A stretch of DNA of 8,576 nt from JBFLYE01 sp040756715 [NCBI: bacterium] (GTDB lineage: Bacteria > UBA9089 > UBA9088), in the NCBI GenBank assembly GCA_040756715.1, contig JBFLYE010000054.1, positions 1 to 8,576 on the forward strand, in the 5' to 3' direction. How positions within the stretch are numbered: position 1 is the stretch's first letter; each line of letters begins with the position of its first letter. Of the stretch, positions 1 through 8,576 are shown in pieces. Made by a program: the position numbers and the translations under genes. Under the pieces are notes generated by a model, which worked only from the letters and a program-made list of their open reading frames with translations, was not told the DNA's origin and searched no databases.

Positions 1-23
1 AATTTTATAAAACTTAAACCTTC

Positions 24-58
24 AATTCAAAATTCAAAATTTAGAATTCAAAATTTCT
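24..58. repeat. AT-rich heptamer tandem repeat (AATTCAA-like, five units)
   Basis: Five consecutive 7-base units can be read: AATTCAA, AATTCAA, AATTTAG, AATTCAA, AATTTCT. The 11-mer AATTCAAAATT therefore occurs three times, at 24, 31 and 45, with spacing in multiples of seven. The repeat lies in a gene-poor stretch before the priA promoter. It resembles short tandemly repeated heptanucleotides known from some bacterial intergenic regions. No function can be assigned. Confidence 0.6.
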
Positions 59-109
59 TAAAAGGTGGATGAATTTTAAACAGATAAACATACCCTATCT
101 ATTTTTGCA

Positions 110-328
110 CTAAGTGATGGAAGATACTATAGTAGCTTTCATAAACTTTTCTTTTAAGCTGTCTGGTAAAATTCCAGAGATAAATGATTCCTTTCCCTTA
201 AATTCCCTGATATAATTAGGGCTTTCTGATTGCCAAGGGAAAAACCTTTTTAGGGTTATACCAAATATCACTTCTAAATTTTGCTCTTCTTCACAAAACT
301 TGACAAGAAAAAAATAAAAGCCTATCAT
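110..328 (-). CDS. Doubtful small hypothetical ORF, 72 codons
   Basis: I do not recognise this protein. The reading frame is open for 72 codons in a stretch with no other gene. Its codons (AGG, ATA, GGA, GAA) resemble those of the neighbours, and the product is mixed charged and hydrophobic with no signal peptide, membrane helix or known motif. Against it: it ends in TAG while the confidently called genes all end in TAA; its ATG has no Shine-Dalgarno and lies inside the -10 box of the divergent priA promoter; and no promoter is evident for it. An internal GTG at 266-268 is another possible start. It could be a small real gene, the remnant of a decayed gene, or chance. The rest of 1-334 holds only the heptamer repeat and the priA promoter. 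Confidence 0.25.
   Translation of the reverse strand: MIGFYFFLVKFCEEEQNLEVIFGITLKRFFPWQSESPNYIREFKGKESFISGILPDSLKEKFMKATIVSSIT
300..328 (+). promoter_or_regulatory. priA promoter, sigma70-like, apparently leaderless
   Basis: A perfect -35 hexamer TTGACA (300-305) is followed by a 17-base spacer and a -10 hexamer TATCAT (323-328). The -10 ends 6 bases before the priA ATG at 335, so the expected transcription start is the A of the ATG. No Shine-Dalgarno precedes that ATG. Hexamer quality and spacing are seen directly; transcription from here is inferred. Confidence 0.65.
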
Positions 329-334
329 TGCAAT

Positions 335-2302
335 ATGTATGCTAAGGTTGCCTTAAGGATTAAGAGCGAAAATCTCTATACATATAACATTCCAGAGGAA
401 TTAGAAACCTTTGCAGAGATGGGAAAGAGGGTTCTTGTTCCTTTAAGGAACAGGGAGGTGGTAGGATGGCTTATAGAAAAATGCGAAATAAAAGATTATG
501 AAAAGGAAATAAAGGACATCATTGCAATCCTTGATGATGAGCCTTTAATTGATGCCCCCCTTATAGAGCTTTGCCGTTGGATATCATCATATTATCTTGC
601 CTCTTTTGGCGATGCCCTATCTTTGCTTATTCCTAAGGGTAAAATAAAAAGGTATCCCTTGGAAGAAAAAGCCGAAGAAATTCTTTGTTTAAAACCAGCC
701 TTTACCCCAAACAAGGAGCAGGGATATGCCATATCAGAGATATGCAGGTCAATTAAGGCAAGAAAATTTGCTACATTCCTTTTATATGGGGTAACCGGAA
801 GTGGAAAGACAGAGGTCTATCTTCAGGTAATCCAGAAGGTAATTGAGAATAATGGCTCTGCTATTGTCCTTGTCCCAGAAATATCCCTTACCCCACAGAT
901 GATAAATAGATTTAAGGCAAGGTTTGGGAATAAATCTGCCATTCTTCATTCAAGGCTTACAGGAAAACAGAGGTTTATTGAATGGCAAAGGATAAGGATA
1001 AAAGAGGCATCTATTGTGGTTGGGGCAAGAAGCGCCCTATTTGCTCCCGCAAGGAATTTAAGGCTGATAATTGTTGATGAGGAGCAATCCACCTCGTATA
1101 AACAGGAAAGCAATCCGAGATACAATGCAAGGGATTTAGCGATTATGAGGGCAAAGATAGAAAATTGCGTGTGTATTTTAGGAAGTGCAACCCCTTCATT
1201 AGAATCATTCTATAATGCCCAAAGCAAGTATACCCTCCTTCATTTGCCAAACAGGATTGAAAAAAGGCCCCTTCCTCTGGTTGAGATTGTGGATATGCGA
1301 GGTGAAAAAAAGGAGACAATATTTAGCAGCCGTCTTAAGGATGCCATTTTTTATACCTTAAAAGAAAATGGCCAAATTATCCTCCTTCTTAATAGAAGGG
1401 GCTATTCAAATTTCCTTATGTGCTATGATTGTGGATTTATCCCAGGGTGTGTAAATTGTGATATTACCTTAACCTTTCATTCACAGGACAAAAGCCTTAA
1501 ATGTCATTATTGTGGATACAGAAGACGAGCATTTGATATTTGTCCAAAATGTAAGGGTAGTAGGCTTAAGTTTTCTGGTTTTGGAACACAGAGGATAGAG
1601 AATGAGATAAAAAGCCTTTTCCCTTCAGCCAGGATTTTAAGGATGGATATAGATACAACAAAGAAAAGGGGCTCCCATAATGAAATCCTTTCAAGGTTTG
1701 AAAGGAATGAAGCGGATATTTTGGTAGGAACCCAGATGATCTCAAAAGGGCTTGATTTTCCCAATGTCCTTTTGGTTGGTGTTATATCTTCTGATGTAAG
1801 CCTTTCCCTTCCTGATTTTAGGGCAGGGGAGAAAACCTTTTCTTTACTTACCCAGGTTGCCGGAAGGTCAGGAAGGGGAACAAAGGAGGGAAGGGTGATT
1901 ATCCAGACATACAACCCAGGTCATTATGCCATTCAAACCGCTGTGCATCAGAATTATTCCCTATTCTTTCAAGAGGAGATAAAATACAGAAAGGAGCTTT
2001 TTTATCCGCCGTTTTCAAGGCTTCTTTCCCTTGTCTTGCTCTCTGATGATGAAAAGGATGCATTAGATGCGGCAAATTCCCTTTTTAATTGCCTTAAATC
2101 AAACAATAATGATGGTGTAATTATTTTAGGACCTGCTCCATATTTTATCCCAAAGATAAAAAGGCAATATCGCTTTCAAATTCTCCTTAAAGCAAGGGAT
2201 TATAAAAAGATGCAAAACCTCCTTTCAAAAGCCCTTTCAAGCTTTAAGCTTCCCTCTGGGGTTGACCTTATTAAGGATATGGATCCTGTGGGCATAGTTT
2301 AA
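335..2302 (+). CDS. priA: Primosomal protein N' (replication restart helicase PriA)
   Basis: PriA is a superfamily 2 DNA helicase that recognises stalled or repaired forks and starts reloading of the replicative helicase. The 655-residue product has the N-terminal 3'-end-binding region (about 1-90), Walker A GVTGSGKT (152-159), motif II DEEQ (248-251), motif III GSATPS (283-288), eight zinc-binding cysteines in four pairs (363/366, 372/375, 390/393, 403/406), motif V around GTQMISKGLDFP, motif VI QVAGRSGR (507-514) and the usual DMDP near the C-terminus. It is full length but shorter than E. coli PriA (732). ATG 335 is preferred over an in-frame TTG at 281 because homologues begin MYAKVA-like and the promoter -10 ends 6 bases before it; the TTG form would start upstream of that promoter. 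Odd point: motif II is normally DEEH. The gene converges on the DksA-like gene with 30 bases between and no clear terminator. Confidence 0.97.
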   Translation: MYAKVALRIKSENLYTYNIPEELETFAEMGKRVLVPLRNREVVGWLIEKCEIKDYEKEIKDIIAILDDEPLIDAPLIELCRWISSYYLASFGDALSLLIPKGKIKRYPLEEKAEEILCLKPAFTPNKEQGYAISEICRSIKARKFATFLLYGVTGSGKTEVYLQVIQKVIENNGSAIVLVPEISLTPQMINRFKARFGNKSAILHSRLTGKQRFIEWQRIRIKEASIVVGARSALFAPARNLRLIIVDEEQSTSYKQESNPRYNARDLAIMRAKIENCVCILGSATPSLESFYNAQSKYTLLHLPNRIEKRPLPLVEIVDMRGEKKETIFSSRLKDAIFYTLKENGQIILLLNRRGYSNFLMCYDCGFIPGCVNCDITLTFHSQDKSLKCHYCGYRRRAFDICPKCKGSRLKFSGFGTQRIENEIKSLFPSARILRMDIDTTKKRGSHNEILSRFERNEADILVGTQMISKGLDFPNVLLVGVISSDVSLSLPDFRAGEKTFSLLTQVAGRSGRGTKEGRVIIQTYNPGHYAIQTAVHQNYSLFFQEEIKYRKELFYPPFSRLLSLVLLSDDEKDALDAANSLFNCLKSNNNDGVIILGPAPYFIPKIKRQYRFQILLKARDYKKMQNLLSKALSSFKLPSGVDLIKDMDPVGIV

Positions 2303-2332
2303 TCTCAACTTTAAGGATAAACACACAACGCT

Positions 2333-2701
2333 TTAAGCCCCTTTTTCCTTCTGACATTTGATGCAGAGCCTTGTAAATGGGATAATCTCAAGCCTTTCTA
2401 TTGCTATCCCTTTTTTGCAACCTTCACAGATACCATAGGTTCCATCCTCTATCCTTAACATAGCACTATCTATTTCCTGAATGGTGTTTGAGATATTCTC
2501 AATAATGGAAATTTCCTTTTCCTGTTCATATACATCCCCTGATATATCAGCAATGTGGATGGGGTATGCGGAAAGATTACTTGTTTTCTCTCGCACCTGT
2601 TTATGGAGATACTCGGCTTCAAGGATTTCTTTTTCTTTAAGGTGCTCCTTTCTAATGGCTAATAGCCTTTGTTTAAATCTCTCAATATCACCCTTTTTCA
2701 T
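2333..2701 (-). CDS. DksA/TraR-family C4 zinc-finger protein
   Basis: Members of this family bind in the secondary channel of RNA polymerase and alter transcription initiation, often together with ppGpp; others are uncharacterised. The 122-residue product starts with a long charged helical stretch (about 1-85) suited to the family's coiled coil. It then has the zinc finger: YGICEGC (C92, C95), a RLEIIPFTRLC linker, and C113/C116. All four metal ligands are cysteines. The tip region reads IADISGDVYEQEKEIS (about 51-65), closer to the YteA-like proteins of Gram-positives (ADxGTExYERE) than to the DxxDxA tip of E. coli DksA, so a true DksA role is not certain. ATG 2701 is the only sensible start and has no Shine-Dalgarno. 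The gene lies 120 bases downstream of hisIE on the same strand and has its own possible promoter. Confidence 0.9.
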   Translation of the reverse strand: MKKGDIERFKQRLLAIRKEHLKEKEILEAEYLHKQVREKTSNLSAYPIHIADISGDVYEQEKEISIIENISNTIQEIDSAMLRIEDGTYGICEGCKKGIAIERLEIIPFTRLCIKCQKEKGA

Positions 2702-2706
2702 TTTGG

Positions 2707-2742
2707 TCTATAAATTATAATTTTAAATTGTAAAAAAGTAAA
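2707..2742 (-). promoter_or_regulatory. Possible promoter(s) of the DksA-like gene, very short or no leader
   Basis: Reading the minus strand, two overlapping promoter-like pairs precede the ATG at 2701. One is TTTACT (2742-2737), N17, TATAAT (2719-2714), which would give a leader of about 6 bases. The other is TTTACA (2734-2729), N16, TATAGA (2712-2707), ending 5 bases before the ATG. The region is very AT-rich, so chance matches are easy. The rest of the 2702-2821 gap holds only a weak AAGCT/AGCTT inverted repeat (2776-2780 and 2791-2795) with no adjoining T-run. Confidence 0.4.
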
Positions 2743-2821
2743 TTTTTACCTTATTTTTAAAAATTGGATATGTTTAAGCTCCTCTATATTAGCTTGATGA
2801 ACGCAATAAACTCTACAATGC

Positions 2822-3427
2822 TTATTTCCTTCTTTTCTTAAGCTCAGAGAGGACATCGTTTGGATTTATTTCATGAAAACCAAGGAGGACAAAAAGATGA
2901 TACAAGAGGTCAGCGGTTTCGTAAATTATTCCATCTTTATTATCCTTTTCTCCTTCTAATATTACCTCTTCTAGCTCCTCCCTTAACTTCTCGTATATCT
3001 TTGCCTTTCCTTCCCTGAATAATCTCGTGGTATACGAACCCTCCTTTGGATTTTTCTTTCTCAAAAGGATAACATTATAGAGCTCGGACAGAATGCCTTT
3101 TTGGACAACATCCCTTCTTTGGTGTAGCTTTTCAAAAAAGCAGGTTCTATTTCCTGTATGGCAGGCATTGCCTGTTTGGGAAACCTTTATAAGCAATGTA
3201 TCCCTATCACAATCTACATAGATGCTTGAAACATCCTGAAAACATCCAGAGGTTTCTCCCTTTAGCCATAGCTTATTCCTTGTTCTACTAAAGAACCAGG
3301 TTCTTCCCTCTTCAATTGTCTTCTTAAGGGATTCCTCATTCATATAGGCAAGCATTAGGACCTCATCTGTTTCCTCATCAACTATAATGGCTGGAATTAG
3401 CCCATCCTTAAATAAAAGCTCATTCAT
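2822..3427 (-). CDS. hisIE: Bifunctional phosphoribosyl-AMP cyclohydrolase / phosphoribosyl-ATP pyrophosphatase
   Basis: The enzyme performs steps two and three of histidine synthesis: PR-ATP to PR-AMP plus pyrophosphate (HisE part), then opening of the adenine ring to ProFAR (HisI part). The 201-residue protein has the HisI domain at about 1-105, with VLMLAYMN (23-30), [17 protein letters not shown] (45-61), the metal-binding DCDRD (72-76) and [10 protein letters not shown] (88-97) supplying the zinc cysteines. The HisE domain covers about 112-201, with SYT (131-133), the acidic EELEEV helix (150-155) and ETADLLYH (170-177). Both domains keep their key residues and the length is normal for the fusion. 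No other his gene is in the window, so the pathway is dispersed. The gene is divergent from ahcY. ATG 3427 has no Shine-Dalgarno and sits at the predicted transcription start. Confidence 0.96.
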
Positions 3428-3433
3428 AGGTAT

Positions 3434-3463
3434 ATTTTAGACAAAAACCTGAATTTTAAGCAA
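3434..3463 (-). promoter_or_regulatory. hisIE promoter, sigma70-like, apparently leaderless
   Basis: On the minus strand, TTGCTT (3463-3458) is followed by an 18-base spacer and TAAAAT (3439-3434). The -10 ends 6 bases before the ATG at 3427, the same distance as at priA and fliF, which would place transcription start on the A of the ATG. No Shine-Dalgarno lies in those 6 bases. Confidence 0.55.
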
Positions 3464-3500
3464 TAAAATTCTCGGATGTGTTTTAACTTCCTTATTTTTC

Positions 3501-3529
3501 TTGCAAATTTTCTTTCCTTATTCTATATT
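3501..3529 (+). promoter_or_regulatory. ahcY promoter, sigma70-like
   Basis: TTGCAA (3501-3506), a 17-base spacer and TATATT (3524-3529) form a good sigma70-type promoter. The expected start is near 3536, leaving a leader of about 16 bases that just contains the ribosome-binding site. The leader is too short for a SAM or SAH riboswitch. The promoter is divergent from that of hisIE, and the -35 boxes are about 37 bases apart. Confidence 0.55.
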
Positions 3530-3538
3530 ATTATCGTT

Positions 3539-3545
3539 AAGGAGG
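3539..3545 (+). promoter_or_regulatory. Strong ribosome-binding site of ahcY
   Basis: AAGGAGG ends 6 bases before ATG 3552 and is the only perfect Shine-Dalgarno directly in front of a start in the window. It fixes the ahcY start and contrasts with the genes that lack one. Confidence 0.85.
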
Positions 3546-3551
3546 ATTTAA

Positions 3552-4805
3552 ATGGATTATGATATCACCAATCTTGGGTTAAAGGAAAAGGGAAGATTGA
3601 GGGCAGAGTGGGCAGGTGCTCAAATGAGCGTTCTTTCTATGATAAAAGAGGGGTTTTTAAAAGAAAAGCCTTTCTCTGGTATAAAGATAGCCTGTTGCCT
3701 TCATGTAACATCAGAGACAGCAAATCTATGCAAGACATTAAAGGCTGGTGGTGCTGATGTTTTATTATGCGCCTCAAACCCATTGTCAACCCAGGATGAT
3801 ATTGCCGCATATCTTGTCTCACTTGGAATTCCTGTATTTGCAAAGTGTGGCGAGGACAATAAAACATATTATAGCCATATAAACGCTTGTTTAGACAAAA
3901 AACCAAACATTACAATGGATGATGGTGCTGACCTTGTCTCTGTAATCCATAAGGAAAGGCAAAACTTGGTAGAAAATATAATTGGAGGAAGTGAGGAGAC
4001 AACAACAGGCGTAATAAGGTTAAGAAGCTTAGAGAAGAACAAACTCCTCCTCTATCCCATTATTGCTGTAAATGATGCCCAAACAAAGCACTTTTTTGAC
4101 AATAGGTATGGAACAGGACAATCAACCATAGATGGCATATTAAGGGCAACCAATAGGTTGCTTTGTGGTAGCAGGTTTGTTATTTGTGGATATGGATGGT
4201 GTGGAAGGGGGCTTTCTATGAGGGCAAGGGGAATGGGTGCGAATGTTATTATTGTAGAGACAGACCCCTTAAAGGCATTAGAGGCGGTTATGGATGGATA
4301 TTCTGTAATGCCAATAATGGAGGCTTCAAAAATTGGCGATATATTCATCACAGTAACCGGGAATATAAATGTCATAAGAAAGGAGCATTTTAGCGTAATG
4401 AAGGATAATGTAATCCTTGCCAATACAGGACACTTCAATGTTGAAATTGATATTCCAGCACTTGAGGGACTTTCTGTAGAAAAAAGAAAGATTCGTGATT
4501 TTGTTGATGAATATACCCTGCAGGATGGAAGGAAGATAAATTTGCTTGGGGATGGCAGGCTGATAAACCTTGTTTCAGCAGAGGGTCATCCATCCTCGGT
4601 TATGGATATGTCATTTGCAAATCAAGCCTTAGCCTGCGAATTTTTAGTAAAGAATAAAGGAAAGCTTGAAAAAAGGGTCTACGATGTTCCCCTTGAGCAG
4701 GATAAAGAGATAGCAAGGCTTAAACTTTTATCCCTTGGTGTAAGCATAGACAATTTAACAGAGGAGCAAATAAGCTATCTTTCAGATTGGGAAAAGGGAA
4801 CATAA
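3552..4805 (+). CDS. ahcY: S-adenosylhomocysteine hydrolase (adenosylhomocysteinase)
   Basis: The enzyme splits S-adenosylhomocysteine, the by-product of SAM-dependent methylation, into adenosine and homocysteine, using bound NAD. The 417-residue cytosolic protein shows the substrate motif CLHVTSETA (49-57), SNPLSTQDD (75-83), DDGADL (123-128), EETTTGV (148-154), NDAQTK (174-179), [10 protein letters not shown] (182-191), the Rossmann NAD loop GYGWCGRG (213-220), NTGHF (291-295) and [11 protein letters not shown] (345-355). It ends at [16 protein letters not shown], without the C-terminal KPDHYRY-like tail that supplies a lysine and tyrosine to the neighbour's NAD site in the long form. That makes it the short Thermotoga/archaeal type. 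Some members of that group prefer S-inosylhomocysteine, so the true substrate is not settled. The gene is followed after 34 bases by pstS with no terminator between. Confidence 0.96.
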
Positions 4806-4809
4806 GGAA

Positions 4810-4839
4810 ATTTAGGATTTTTAAGATTTAGGATTTAAG
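4810..4839 (+). repeat. ATTTAGG/ATTTAAG repeat carrying the pstS ribosome-binding site
   Basis: The ahcY-pstS gap is almost entirely repeat: ATTTAGG (4810-4816), ATTTTTAAG (4817-4825), ATTTAGG (4826-4832), ATTTAAG (4833-4839), then the pstS ATG at 4840. The second AGG, with the following A (AGGA, 4830-4833), lies 6 bases before the ATG and is the only Shine-Dalgarno-like sequence available. No hairpin terminator or clear -35/-10 pair is visible here. Confidence 0.6.
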
Positions 4840-5862
4840 ATGAAAATATTGCTTCTTCTAGCCCTGCTGCTGGCAGCCTGTAATCTTCGTAAAATAGAGC
4901 TACAAGGTGCAGGTGCAAGCTTTCCCTATCCACTTTATTCAAAGATGTTTGAGGGGTATTACAAGGAATTTAATGTAAGGATAAATTATCAGGCAATAGG
5001 CTCTGGCGGAGGGATAAGGCAGCTTCTAGCTAAAACCGTTGATTTTGGAGCCTCTGATGTATTTATGAGCGACAAAGAGCTTAAAGAAAGCCCTGATATC
5101 CTTCATATTCCGATTTGCATGGGCGCTGTGGTTATAACCTATAATCTACCAGGTAATCCTAAAATTAAGCTTATACCCAATGTCATTGCTGATATATTTT
5201 TAGGAAAAATTAAAAAATGGAATGACAAGAGAATTAAAGAGATAAATCCTAATGTAGCTTTGCCAAATAAGGACATAATTGTTATAAGACGCTCTGATGC
5301 CTCGGGAACAACATTTATATTTACCGATTACCTTTCAAAGATTAGTAAGGATTGGGAGAAAAATATAGAGAAAGGCTTAATGGTTAATTGGAAAATAGGA
5401 TTGGGAGGAAAGGGAAATGCAGGGGTTACATCTTTGATTAAACAAATGAGCGGAAGCATTGGATATATTGAGCTTACCTATGCAATGGAGCAAAATTTGC
5501 CTTATGCTATTATAAAAAACAAAAAGGGAAATTTTATAGAGCCAGATATTTCTTCTGTCTCTCTGGCAGGAGATATAGAGATTCCACAAGATACAAGAAT
5601 ATCAATAGTGAACACAGATAATCCTCTTGGCTATCCAATATCGGGCTTTACCTGGATTTTGGTTTATAAGGAGCAAGGGGAAGAAAAAAAGGGGAAAGAG
5701 CTTGCAAAGCTAATTTGGTGGATGACCCATAAAGGTCAGGAATATACAAAACCCCTTCACTATGCACCCCTTCCAACCCCTGTAATAAAGAAAGCAGAGG
5801 CGATAATAAGCTTAATAAGTTATAATGGTAGACCATTACTCAAACAAGGAGCTAATTTTTAA
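4840..5862 (+). CDS. pstS: Phosphate ABC transporter substrate-binding lipoprotein PstS
   Basis: PstS captures inorganic phosphate outside the cytoplasmic membrane and passes it to PstC/PstA. The 340-residue product begins with a short lipoprotein signal, MKILLLLALLLAAC, with cysteine 14 as the lipid-attachment residue of an LAAC lipobox. The mature part carries family motifs: GAGASFPYPLY (23-33), GSGGGIRQ (54-61), DFGASDV (68-74), RRSDASGTTFIFTDY (150-164), with the arginine, serine and GT that contact phosphate, GKGNAGV (190-196), GSIGYIELTYA (205-215) and YPISGFTWILVY (265-276). Length is normal. The ATG follows AGGA by 6 bases. The gene is the first of pstSCAB and may be read through from ahcY. 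No Pho-box-like operator was recognised, and no phoU follows the operon. Confidence 0.96.
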   Translation: MKILLLLALLLAACNLRKIELQGAGASFPYPLYSKMFEGYYKEFNVRINYQAIGSGGGIRQLLAKTVDFGASDVFMSDKELKESPDILHIPICMGAVVITYNLPGNPKIKLIPNVIADIFLGKIKKWNDKRIKEINPNVALPNKDIIVIRRSDASGTTFIFTDYLSKISKDWEKNIEKGLMVNWKIGLGGKGNAGVTSLIKQMSGSIGYIELTYAMEQNLPYAIIKNKKGNFIEPDISSVSLAGDIEIPQDTRISIVNTDNPLGYPISGFTWILVYKEQGEEKKGKELAKLIWWMTHKGQEYTKPLHYAPLPTPVIKKAEAIISLISYNGRPLLKQGANF

Positions 5863-6703
5863 GAAAATTCTCTTCCTTTCAGGCTTGTTTATAATAGCCC
5901 TCCTCTTTACTATTTTTTTGACACTTATTGTCTCTTCTTTTCCAAGCATTAAAGCCTTTGGTCTAGGATTTTTATCAGGAAAAATATGGGATCCGGTATT
6001 TTCTCAATATGGCTGTTTTCCATTTCTTCTTGGAACGCTCATTACAGCAGGATTGGCACTTTTTCTCTCCTTTTTCTTCTCCCTCTCCATATCTATTCTT
6101 ATTGGAGAATACCTCAAAAAAGGAATCCTGCCATTTCTTCTTAAGGGTTTAATTGACCTCCTTGCCGGCATTCCCTCTGTAATTTATGGATTTTGGGGGC
6201 TCTTCTTTCTTGTTCCAATTGTGCAAAAAATAGAGGTTTTTTTAGGAATAACGCCATATGGTGTTTCTATTCTCACCGCCTCCCTTGTTCTTTCCATTAT
6301 GATAATTCCATATTCAGCATCCATTGGAAGGGAGGTAATCAGCCTTGTTCCATCTGAGATTAAAGAAGCAGGTTATTCCCTGGGTGCAACAAGGTATGAG
6401 GTTATAAGAAAGGTTATTCTGCCCTATGCAAAGGGAGGGCTATTTGCAGGATTTTTGCTCTCTTTGGGAAGGGCATTGGGAGAGACAATGGCGGTTACGA
6501 TGGTAATTGGGAATTCGGCCCTTTTGCCAAAGAATATTTTTAACCCGGGGAATACTATGGCATCTGTCATTGCAAATGAGATAACCGAGGCAACAGGAAA
6601 ATTATACCTTTCCTCATTGATTGAGATAGGGCTTGTTCTATTTATATTAACAACAATTGTAAATATTATGGGAAGTTATATGGTAGGAAGGGTAAAATGT
6701 TAA
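5825..6703 (+). CDS. pstC: Phosphate ABC transporter permease PstC
   Basis: PstC is one of two membrane subunits forming the phosphate channel. The 292-residue protein has about six hydrophobic segments (near 15-37, 64-93, 110-132, 145-162, 203-225 and 264-285). It has the permease coupling loop EAGYSLGATRYEVIRKVILP (181-200), which docks on PstB, followed by the typical GRALGETMAV (215-224). AGIPSVIYGFWGL (114-126) is also characteristic. The ATG lies 38 bases inside pstS and has no Shine-Dalgarno, so translation is probably coupled to pstS. It is the only canonical start that keeps the whole first membrane helix. A good AAGGAG at 5846-5851 follows the ATG, but the in-frame codon at the right distance is ATT (5855), so a rare ATT start is a remote alternative. 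Confidence 0.94.
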   Translation: MVDHYSNKELIFKKILFLSGLFIIALLFTIFLTLIVSSFPSIKAFGLGFLSGKIWDPVFSQYGCFPFLLGTLITAGLALFLSFFFSLSISILIGEYLKKGILPFLLKGLIDLLAGIPSVIYGFWGLFFLVPIVQKIEVFLGITPYGVSILTASLVLSIMIIPYSASIGREVISLVPSEIKEAGYSLGATRYEVIRKVILPYAKGGLFAGFLLSLGRALGETMAVTMVIGNSALLPKNIFNPGNTMASVIANEITEATGKLYLSSLIEIGLVLFILTTIVNIMGSYMVGRVKC

Positions 6704-7494
6704 TCAGAATAATCAAGAACAGGCTTTTTTTGGGAGCTATAGTTTTATTCTCTATTTTCTCAATTATTCCTTTGTTTCTCATTCTCTTTTTTATATTCAA
6801 AAATGGCATATCTTCTTTGGATTTTCTTTTTACTTCCCAGATTTTAAATGCCATTGTGGGAACATTTATTTTAATTATCCTTGCAGGGATATTTTCTATT
6901 CCTTTAGGCATTCTAGCTGGAATATATCTTTCTGAATCTAAAGGAAGGCTGGTATATTTTGTAAGGCTATGTGTTGAGGTCTTACAAGGGATTCCATCCA
7001 TTGTTATTGGAATAATTGTCTATCTCTTAATTGTTGTTCCAATGAAAGGATTTTCTGCTATATCGGGTGGTTTTGCTTTGGGAATAATAATGCTTCCTGT
7101 TATCATAAAATCAACCGAGGAAACCCTAAAGCTTATTCCATATTTCCTAAAGGAGGCATCATTAGCGCTTGGCGTTCCATATTACAAGACAATCCTAAAG
7201 GTTATTCTGCCAGCAGGCTTTTCTGGAATTTTGACAGGAATCCTTTTAAGTATAGCAAGGGTCTCTGGGGAGACAGCACCCCTTCTCCTTACAGCATTTG
7301 GCTCTTGCTTTATGAATCTTGATATTTCAAAGCCAATAAACTCCCTTCCCCTACTTATCTTTAATTATGCTACATCGCCGTATTCTGATTGGATATCACA
7401 AGCCTGGGGGGCTTCCCTTATTTTAGTCTCACTTGTTTTAATCTTAAATATAATAGCTAAGTTAGTTGTAAAAAAATGGAAAATACAGTTTTAA
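6697..7494 (+). CDS. pstA: Phosphate ABC transporter permease PstA
   Basis: PstA is the second channel subunit. The 265-residue protein has about six hydrophobic segments (near 12-34, 51-78, 90-116, 124-138, 173-200 and 238-258), the motif LQGIPSIVIGI (96-106), the coupling loop KEASLALGVPYYKTILKVILP (152-172) and ARVSGETAPLLLTA (187-200), all typical of PstA. It overlaps pstC by seven bases (ATGTTAA), and AGGAAGG at 6685-6691 lies at a good distance before the ATG, so both coupling and direct initiation are possible. Near its end the codons GTA AAA AAA TGG contain the heptamer A AAA AAA (7470-7476) in the slippery phase. Confidence 0.95.
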   Translation: MLIRIIKNRLFLGAIVLFSIFSIIPLFLILFFIFKNGISSLDFLFTSQILNAIVGTFILIILAGIFSIPLGILAGIYLSESKGRLVYFVRLCVEVLQGIPSIVIGIIVYLLIVVPMKGFSAISGGFALGIIMLPVIIKSTEETLKLIPYFLKEASLALGVPYYKTILKVILPAGFSGILTGILLSIARVSGETAPLLLTAFGSCFMNLDISKPINSLPLLIFNYATSPYSDWISQAWGASLILVSLVLILNIIAKLVVKKWKIQF

Positions 7495-8234
7495 AAATAG
7501 AGGGCCTTTATGCCTATTTTGGAGAGCATTGTGTTTTAAAGGATATAAACCTCTCCTTACCTTATAACAATGTAATAGCAATTATGGGGCCATCGGGTTG
7601 TGGAAAGACAACCCTAATAAGGTGTATCAACAGAATGCATGAGCTTATAGAAGATGCAAAGATAGAGGGCAAGGTCTTTCTGCAGGGTGAAGATGTGTAT
7701 AGCCTTGATCCTATAATTGCAAGGAGAAAAACAGGGATGGTCTTTCAAAGGCCAAACCCATTTCCCACAATGAGTATATACGATAATGTCATTGCAGGTT
7801 ATAAGCTAAATGGGATAAAGATAAATAGCTCTGAGAGGGAGAGAATTGTTGAAGAATCCTTAAGAAAGGTGGCCTTATGGGATGAAGTTTGTAATTGTCT
7901 GCATAAAAGGGGAACATTTTTATCGGGTGGTCAGCAGCAAAGGCTTTGTATAGCAAGGGCTTTGAGCCTGAACCCAGAGATATTATTGCTTGATGAGCCT
8001 ACATCTGCCCTAGATCCAAAGGCTACATCTTCTATAGAAGAGCTAATCATAAAGCTAAAGGAAAGCGTGACCATCCTCATTGTTACCCACAATATTGAAC
8101 AGGCAGCAAGGGTCTCTGATTTTACCGCATTTCTATACCTAGGCGAGCTAATTGAATTCGGGAAAACAGAAAAAATCTTTACCGTTCCATCTGATAAAAG
8201 GACAGAGGAATATCTAACAAGGAGGATTAGATAA
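7476..8234 (+). CDS. pstB: Phosphate ABC transporter ATP-binding protein PstB
   Basis: PstB is the cytoplasmic ATPase that powers phosphate import through PstC/PstA. The 252-residue protein has all the ABC motifs: Walker A GPSGCGKT (38-45), the Q-loop GMVFQRPNPFP (87-97), with the PNPFP run diagnostic of PstB, the signature LSGGQQQR (149-156), Walker B ILLLDEP (169-175), the D-loop SALD (177-180) and the switch histidine in VTHN (203-206). The length is normal and no catalytic residue is missing. It overlaps pstA by 19 bases and has no Shine-Dalgarno before ATG 7476, so translation is probably coupled to pstA. It is the last gene of the operon. No hairpin terminator is visible in the 59 bases before fliF. 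Confidence 0.97.
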   Translation: MENTVLKIEGLYAYFGEHCVLKDINLSLPYNNVIAIMGPSGCGKTTLIRCINRMHELIEDAKIEGKVFLQGEDVYSLDPIIARRKTGMVFQRPNPFPTMSIYDNVIAGYKLNGIKINSSERERIVEESLRKVALWDEVCNCLHKRGTFLSGGQQQRLCIARALSLNPEILLLDEPTSALDPKATSSIEELIIKLKESVTILIVTHNIEQAARVSDFTAFLYLGELIEFGKTEKIFTVPSDKRTEEYLTRRIR

Positions 8235-8258
8235 AGTGTATATATACGATAATTTTGC

Positions 8259-8287
8259 TTGACTTTATTTTTAAAGGAACATAAAAT
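8259..8287 (+). promoter_or_regulatory. fliF promoter, sigma70-like, apparently leaderless
   Basis: TTGACT (8259-8264), a 17-base spacer and TAAAAT (8282-8287) form a near-consensus promoter. The -10 ends 6 bases before GTG 8294, so transcription would begin on the first base of that start codon. The AAAGGA at 8273-8278 is 15 bases from the GTG, too far for a normal Shine-Dalgarno, and lies within the spacer, so it would not be in the mRNA. No good sigma28 or sigma54 promoter is seen. Confidence 0.6.
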
Positions 8288-8293
8288 AAAAAT

Positions 8294-8576
8294 GTGGGTA
8301 GGTTTTTTGAGCAGATAACAGCCCTTTGGAAAAGCTGGACAAGGGGAGAGAAAATTACCATTGTAGGCGGTGGATTGCTTTCCTTTATCCTCCTTCTTTT
8401 TCTTATTTCATACATAACCAGGGCAGAATATGCTGATTTATATACAAATATATCCCCTGAGGAGGCAGGAAGAATCGCAAGCAAGTTTGAGGAATGGAAA
8501 CAACCATATAAATTGGAGGGAACAACCATCAAGGTTCCTATAGCTGACAGGGACAAATTAAGGCTTAAACTTGCCT
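8294..8576 (+). CDS. fliF: Flagellar MS-ring protein FliF, N-terminal part, cut by the window end
   Basis: FliF forms the MS ring in the cytoplasmic membrane, the base on which the flagellar rotor and export gate are built. Only the first 94 residues are present (full proteins are about 500-560). There is a cytoplasmic N-terminus, MGRFFEQITALWKSWTRGEK, one membrane helix (about 22-41), then YADLYTNISPEEAGRIASKFEEWKQPYKLEGTTIKVPIADRDKLRLKLA. This matches the family pattern of LY, the E-A pair, P/YKLE, I-V-P and the LRL-LA end of the first ring-building motif. GTG 8294 is the only possible start, since an in-frame TAA lies at 8282-8284 with no other start codon between. It follows pstB by 59 bases and probably begins a flagellar cluster beyond the window. 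Confidence 0.92.
   Translation, partial: MGRFFEQITALWKSWTRGEKITIVGGGLLSFILLLFLISYITRAEYADLYTNISPEEAGRIASKFEEWKQPYKLEGTTIKVPIADRDKLRLKLA

What the first reader, a model, noticed from the sequence alone, without database searches (positions are those of the whole stretch)
300..8296. Shared leaderless architecture: -10 box exactly 6 bases before the start codon at priA, hisIE and fliF
Three unlinked genes show the same layout: priA TTGACA-N17-TATCAT-N6-ATG, hisIE TTGCTT-N18-TAAAAT-N6-ATG, fliF TTGACT-N17-TAAAAT-N6-GTG. None has a Shine-Dalgarno at working distance. Sigma70 promoters usually start about 7 bases after the -10, which is the first base of each start codon. ahcY, the one promoter-proximal gene with a perfect Shine-Dalgarno, has its -10 22 bases away. 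This suggests that leaderless and Shine-Dalgarno-led mRNAs coexist and are separated by gene. Leaderless mRNAs are well known in Actinobacteria and Deinococcus-Thermus. Caveat: the DNA is AT-rich, so TAAAAT-like hexamers are common, and only three cases are seen.
Basis: partly seen in the sequence, partly recalled or inferred. Interest (0 to 1): 0.62.

Follow-up and report, generated by a model that had tools for sequence, protein, structure and literature searches.

The report
Promoters abutting start codons: leaderless genes
In this unnamed bacterium many genes, including three in this window, seem to have their promoter right against the start codon, so the message would begin at the start codon with no ribosome-landing leader; the mechanism is known from other bacteria, but here it marks one branch of a small phylum.

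Summary
priA, hisIE and fliF each have a sigma70-like promoter whose -10 hexamer ends exactly 6 bases before the start codon, with no usable Shine-Dalgarno (SD). In 37% of the window's genome, TAnnnT at exactly -12 precedes 21 of 102 promoter-proximal no-SD genes (200 shuffles: mean 4.5, max 10); operon-internal genes show no such peak. The -12 boxes carry TTGACA-like -35 hexamers at spacers 17-18. The peak recurs in both other genomes of the family. In the sister species the hisIE and fliF promoter blocks are conserved although the DNA further upstream is not. Whole-genome pattern counts give a clear 6-base excess in 5 of 5 genomes of the order and in one further family, not in the other 13 genomes of the phylum. 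fliF has a G-rich SD in all 13 readable relatives outside the family and none in 3 of 3 inside. Best reading: a genome mixing SD-led and leaderless (0-3 nt leader) genes, known in kind (TA-led genes, PMC3160421). No transcript 5' end was mapped, so the RNA itself remains inferred.

The parts
300..328 (+). priA promoter: -35 TTGACA 300-305, spacer 17, -10 TATCAT 323-328
   Evidence: joint best promoter-like site of the window, 11 of 12; sister species has TTGATG-N17-TATCTT with 9 bases to ATG
335..2302 (+). priA, ATG at 335, 6 bases after the -10
   Evidence: Pfam PriA_3primeBD, Zn_ribbon_PriA, PriA_C
3434..3463 (-). hisIE promoter: -35 TTGCTT 3463-3458, spacer 18, -10 TAAAAT 3439-3434
   Evidence: block conserved in the sister species, no visible similarity further upstream
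2822..3427 (-). hisIE, ATG at 3427-3425, 6 bases after the -10
   Evidence: Pfam PRA-CH and PRA-PH
8259..8287 (+). fliF promoter: -35 TTGACT 8259-8264, spacer 17, -10 TAAAAT 8282-8287
   Evidence: block conserved in the sister species, no visible similarity further upstream
8294..8576 (+). fliF (5' part), GTG at 8294, 6 bases after the -10; an in-frame TAA lies inside the -10 box, so GTG is the first possible start
   Evidence: Pfam YscJ_FliF; reading frame; same-genus orthologue aligns from residue 1
3501..3551 (+). ahcY promoter and leader, the SD-led contrast: TTGCAA, N17, TATATT 3524-3529, 22 nt to ATG 3552 with GGAGG 3541-3545

Best explanation
priA, hisIE and fliF are transcribed from housekeeping-type (sigma70-like) promoters that abut the reading frame. 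RNA polymerase starts about 7 bases after the -10 box, which is the first base of the start codon, so the mRNA has no 5' leader (or 1-3 nt) and the ribosome must recognise the 5'-terminal start codon itself rather than an SD. Shown here: the DNA layout, its excess at exactly this distance in genome samples and whole-genome counts, its coupling to a -35, its restriction to promoter-proximal genes, and its conservation for hisIE and fliF in the sister species. Inferred: the transcription start site, and 5'-end-dependent (probably 70S) translation initiation. The genome uses this beside ordinary SD-led initiation.
For: (1) Peak of TAnnnT at -12 before 'first' no-SD starts: 21/102 (shuffles mean 4.5, max 10), 12/60 (3.0, 9), 6/23 (1.25, 5) in three genomes of the family; operon-internal no-SD genes 4/66, 3/50, 2/30, within the shuffle range. 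(2) The -12 boxes have a TTGACA-like hexamer (5 of 6 or better) at 16-18 bases in 41%, 39% and 55% of cases against 12-15% for TAnnnT elsewhere; pooled over 73 boxes, 13 matches at spacer 17 and 18 at spacer 18, 0-3 at each other spacer from 8 to 28. (3) A promoter with 5-8 bases to the start in 45/279, 29/167 and 12/69 promoter-proximal genes against control means 8.8, 6.0 and 4.2. (4) Whole-genome counts independent of gene calls: at 6 bases 38 in G000 against 2, 18 and 6 at 3, 9 and 14 bases. (5) hisIE and fliF promoter blocks conserved with 6 bases in the sister species while the DNA further upstream does not align. (6) fliF has no usable SD in 3 of 3 family genomes although 13 of 13 readable relatives have a G-rich SD.
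Against: No transcript 5' end or protein N-terminus was measured. The hisIE -35 is weak (3 of 6). fliF starts with GTG, a poor leaderless start in E. coli though more efficient in some actinobacteria (PMC9031893, passages seen), and in the sister species AAAGGT stands directly before that GTG (SD-like letters, but with no spacing). The priA distance is not conserved (9 bases in the sister species; in G002 priA follows another gene closely). Gene starts come from a crude caller of my own that misplaced at least one start in the window (pstA at TTG 6730 instead of ATG 6697). Some -12 boxes in the relatives sit in genes with a loose SD match (6 of 64, 4 of 18).
Confidence: 0.85

Rival explanations
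1. Near-leaderless rather than leaderless: transcription starts 1-5 nt before the codon, and a short A/T leader is used.
For: The distance histogram has a shoulder: 24, 10, 10 and 7 promoters at 6, 7, 8 and 9 bases in G000; priA of the sister species has 9 bases, fliF of G002 has 12.
Against: The mode is exactly 6 in all three sampled genomes, which a free short leader would not give.
Confidence: 0.3
2. An A/T-rich, non-SD ribosome site just upstream of the codon (as described for the FCB group, PMC9581028 passages) imitates a -10 box.
For: The sample is 34.5% GC.
Against: The signal is sharp at one position, exceeds dinucleotide shuffles, is absent from operon-internal genes and is tied to a -35 at spacer 17-18.
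Confidence: 0.06
3. Chance: -10-like hexamers are common in A/T-rich DNA.
For: Promoter-like sites as such are not in excess in the window: 22 against 26.4 in shuffles.
Against: Position-specific excess in three genomes and in whole-genome counts; promoter blocks conserved between species.
Confidence: 0.03
4. The genes are mainly expressed from upstream promoters (for fliF by read-through from the pst genes, whose last stop is 59 bases upstream), and the abutting promoter is minor.
For: The pstB reading frame ends at 8234 on the same strand. In the sister species another ABC ATPase, 32% identical to pstB, lies about 1 kb upstream on the same strand.
Against: No usable SD would then serve fliF; in the sister species the same promoter block stands in front of fliF with different DNA upstream.
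Confidence: 0.1

Closest known systems
TA-led (leaderless) genes of bacteria, Zheng et al. 2011, PMC3160421 (abstract and passages seen)
   Same: TANNNT about 12 bp upstream of the translation start, above dinucleotide shuffles, in genomes that also have SD-led genes; change of mechanism between related genomes is described there.
   Different: That survey is of 2011 and used 20 bp upstream of the start in bacteria, so it did not cover the -35; here it is an unnamed lineage at 34.5% GC with a -35 coupled to the box.
Bacterial genomes with mixed leaderless and SD starts, GeneMarkS-2/StartLink+ (PMC9581028, passages seen)
   Different: The figure is cited there from Lomsadze et al. 2018, which is not held; whether this lineage was in that set is unknown.
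Mycobacterial leaderless transcripts (Shell et al. 2015, PMC4633059; search listing only)
   Same: Leaderless transcripts are common; GUG is used efficiently in M. smegmatis (PMC9031893, passages).
   Different: There RNA-seq and ribosome profiling were used (abstract start in the listing); here there is sequence evidence only.

Membership tests
TA-led / leaderless bacterial genes | TANNNT with its first T about 12 bp upstream of the start | tested here: met
   Three window genes; sharp peak at -12 in the genome samples
TA-led / leaderless bacterial genes | excess over dinucleotide-preserving shuffles | tested here: met
   21 against max 10 of 200 shuffles in G000; 12 against max 9 in G001; 6 against max 5 in G002
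TA-led / leaderless bacterial genes | no SD at working distance in the same genes | tested here: met
   Strict SD 0/45, 0/29, 0/12; the exclusion is partly mechanical, and the loose definition is less clean
TA-led / leaderless bacterial genes | mRNA 5' end at the start codon | not testable with these tools
   No transcript data
TA-led / leaderless bacterial genes | translation of the leaderless mRNA | not testable with these tools
   No proteome or ribosome data
sigma70-type promoter | TTGACA-like -35 at 16-18 bp from the -10 | tested here: met
   priA 6/6, fliF 5/6, but hisIE only 3/6; pooled boxes peak at spacers 17-18
Actinobacteria or Deinococcus-Thermus as host | taxonomic membership | tested here: inconclusive

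The most novel reading that the evidence does not exclude
Within one small phylum, leaderless initiation arose (or expanded) at least twice, once in the window's order (5 of 5 held genomes) and once in family f7 (G017), while the 13 other held genomes show no comparable signal; and fliF shows the steps of a switch: promoter plus a leader of about 45 nt with a strong SD in the sister family, a short SD-less leader in G002, no leader in the window's genus.
Probability: 0.5. Interest if true: 0.5.

Novelty: new member of a known kind. Interest (0 to 1): 0.42.

Why it matters
It tells annotators of this lineage that gene starts should be called with a promoter model as well as an SD model. It also offers a compact natural series, in orthologous genes of one phylum, for how an SD-led gene becomes leaderless. 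Genes with the layout include those for ribosomal protein L6, a Clp ATPase and a class II tRNA synthetase (Pfam), so the 5'-end route would carry core functions.

Tried and rejected
Chance in A/T-rich DNA was the main null; it holds for the window taken alone but not for position relative to starts. The anti-SD was not seen: a search of the loci then held for a 16S 3' tail gave two pattern hits, neither with the usual ending and neither followed up. Naming the organism failed: the one genome-contig scan gave four distant named relatives. Orthologue pairs between the samples were few: of 25 G000-G001 pairs with matching starts (operon genes included), 2 have the -12 box in both, 3 only in G000, 1 only in G001 and 19 in neither; of 27 G000-G002 pairs, 2 in both, 2 only in G002 and 23 in neither; of 5 G001-G002 pairs, 1 only in G001 and 4 in neither; too few to measure turnover. 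A guess, from its first residues, that one peak gene was pyrG (in my note) was dropped since Pfam gave that protein no family; other gene names in that note were also recalled. Rfam found nothing in the window at gathering scores. A first gene caller was replaced by a dicodon one. Rows dropped: genes without a called start, without 60 bases upstream, or with N (464 of 486, 304 of 312 and 164 of 171 kept). For fliF in the phylum, G006 (no match), G009 (masked) and G017 (doubtful 28% match) were left out of the SD count.
Full report
What is there. Its genes are priA, a dksA/traR-type zinc finger gene, hisIE, ahcY, four genes that I read as pstS, pstC, pstA and pstB (Pfam: PBP_like_2, BPD_transp_1 twice, ABC_tran) and the start of fliF. 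priA and fliF have 6/6 and 5/6 matches to TTGACA; hisIE has 3/6. ahcY is the SD-led contrast.

Is it more than chance? Promoter-like sites in the window as a whole are not in excess (22 against 26.4 in shuffles), so three cases alone prove little. I therefore sampled the genome: 85 stretches, 580,036 bases, 37% (80 are the odd-numbered contigs C1 to C159, 5 were picked by hand, the window's own contig among them). A dicodon gene caller of my own gave 486 genes, 464 usable; starts were chosen without any upstream signal. 'Promoter-proximal' means divergent, at least 25 bases from a same-strand neighbour, or next to a contig edge; 'first' means divergent or at least 60 bases; 'operon-internal' means less than 25 bases.

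The peak. Among 102 'first' genes without an SD, TAnnnT stands at exactly -12 in 21 cases; the mean per position from -55 to -18 is 4.2, and 200 dinucleotide shuffles give a mean of 4.5 and a maximum of 10. 'First' genes with a loose SD (86) show 3; operon-internal genes show 4 of 66 (no SD) and 3 of 119 (loose SD), within the shuffle range. The same-genus genome G001 (20 stretches, 380,819 bases) gives 12 of 60 (shuffle mean 3.0, maximum 9) and G002 of the same family (20 stretches, 183,529 bases) 6 of 23 (1.25, maximum 5). Against a clean partition: in G001 and G002 the loose-SD 'first' class also has 6 of 64 and 4 of 18 at -12, and the loose-SD genes 25-59 bases from a neighbour in G000 have 4 of 21. 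Of the window's three genes only hisIE is among the 21; priA is an edge gene, and the loose SD score counts spacer strings at priA and fliF as SD.

It is a promoter, not just A/T. Of 39 boxes at -12 in G000, 41% have a TTGACA-like hexamer (5 of 6 or better) at 16-18 bases, against 12% of 351 TAnnnT elsewhere; G001 39% of 23 against 15% of 215, G002 55% of 11 against 12% of 94. Pooled over the three genomes, such a hexamer lies at spacer 17 in 13 and at spacer 18 in 18 cases among 73 boxes, and 0-3 times at each other spacer from 8 to 28; TAnnnT elsewhere also peak at 17-18, as other promoters should, but less (67 among 453). Counting promoters with a -35 of 4/6 or better, G000 has 24 at 6 bases, 10 at 7, 10 at 8 and 7 at 9, and at other distances from 0 to 30 between 0 and 7 except 11 at 11 bases; 45 of 279 promoter-proximal genes have one at 5-8 bases (control windows 8.8), 29 of 167 in G001 (6.0), 12 of 69 in G002 (4.2); operon-internal 7 of 185, 6 of 137, 0 of 95. 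The excess is therefore roughly 11-14% of promoter-proximal genes, with leaders of 0-2 nt if transcription starts 7 bases after the -10. A strict SD (AGGAG, GGAGG or GAGGT at -16 to -5) is in 0 of 45, 0 of 29 and 0 of 12 of these genes and in 29 of 234, 23 of 138 and 5 of 57 of the other promoter-proximal ones; this is partly mechanical since the box occupies the SD positions.

Conservation at the window's genes. In G001, hisIE has TTGCTT-N17-TAAAAT-N6-ATG and fliF TTGACT-N17-TAAAAT-N6-GTG; the blocks align while the DNA upstream of them shows no visible similarity. ahcY is not found in the hisIE locus; in the fliF locus the only pst-like match is an ABC ATPase 32% identical to pstB, about 1 kb upstream, so not the window's neighbour by identity. 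priA in G001 has TTGATG-N17-TATCTT and 9 bases to ATG; in G002 priA closely follows another gene and has no such site. In G002 fliF has TTGACT-N17-TAGAAT and 12 bases to ATG, without an SD.

Phylum-wide. The genome search holds 19 genomes of the phylum, 5 of the order, 3 of the family. Whole-genome counts of TTGACN-N16..18-TAnnnT-Nk-ATG at k = 3, 6, 9 and 14 (tallied): order, five genomes together, 17, 182, 77 and 32; G017 3, 35, 5 and 6; the other 13 genomes 106, 235, 334 and 136. Against a generous expectation from all k of 0-25 (spacer 17 alone times three), k = 6 is 2.4 to 3.5 times too frequent in 5 of 5 genomes of the order and 2.7 times in G017, and 0.4 to 1.0 times in 13 of 13 others. 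By a second measure, k = 6 over the mean of k = 3, 9 and 14, the order has 3.4 to 5.6, G017 7.5 and the others 0.6 to 2.0, so a weak signal in a few of the others (G006 1.97, G015 1.94) is not excluded. These counts do not ask whether the ATG is a gene start.

fliF across the phylum. Upstream of fliF, 13 of 13 readable genomes outside the family (G003, G004, G005, G007, G008, G010-G016, G018) have a G-rich SD; in G016 it is a run of G only. The three genomes of the family have none at working distance; G001 has AAAGGT directly against its GTG. In G003 and G004 a TTGACA..TACTAT promoter stands about 51 bases upstream, before a leader that ends in the SD. So within one order fliF passes from SD-led through a short SD-less leader to leaderless, if the promoters are read correctly.

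How it most likely works. The polymerase starts at the start codon and the ribosome takes the 5'-terminal codon. The DNA layout, its excess and its conservation are shown; the start site and the mode of translation are inferred from what is established for TA-led genes (PMC3160421, abstract and passages) and for leaderless mRNA (PMC9031893, passages).

Known or new. The mechanism is known and widespread; StartLink+ cites 21.6% of bacterial species (PMC9581028, passages). My four paper searches listed 15 of 73, 15 of 22, 4 of 4 and 10 of 348 papers; none of the listed titles is about leaderless genes in an uncultured phylum. The lists are partial and the phylum is unnamed here, so absence from print is not claimed. 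I file it as a new member of a known kind.

Noticed in passing
window 1-137: Right end of a repeated MITE-like element of about 245 bp with ends TATAGTTAATTCC...GGAAGATACTATA (imperfect terminal inverted repeats, TA at the borders; seen by eye on the consensus of 14 full copies). 33 strong matches in the 580-kb sample, the window's own included, several at contig ends; weak fragments in the G001 sample, none in G002's.
   Followed up: partly
window 8351-8576 and G000:C56:4887-5112 (L002): The end of the window overlaps the end of contig C56 at 99% identity; fliF goes on there.
   Followed up: no
G017, whole genome: A second family (f7) of the phylum shows the same 6-base excess (35 against 3, 5 and 6 at 3, 9 and 14 bases).
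   Followed up: partly
G009 and G010, whole genomes: The counts at 9 bases are very high (61 and 82). In the listed rows of G009 a repeated promoter-like string (TTGACAT...GTAAAATATCC..ATAATG) recurs many times; the list for G010 was cut.
   Followed up: no
L091 (G002 C47), 1504-2084: The hisI and hisE parts match in two different frames that overlap by a few bases, whereas the window has a fused hisIE.
   Followed up: no
L081 (G002 C43): priA lies directly behind a gene that looks like 5-formyltetrahydrofolate cyclo-ligase (name recalled from its sequence, not searched; reading frame); in the window the listed ORFs of 60 aa or more show no same-strand gene before priA.
   Followed up: no
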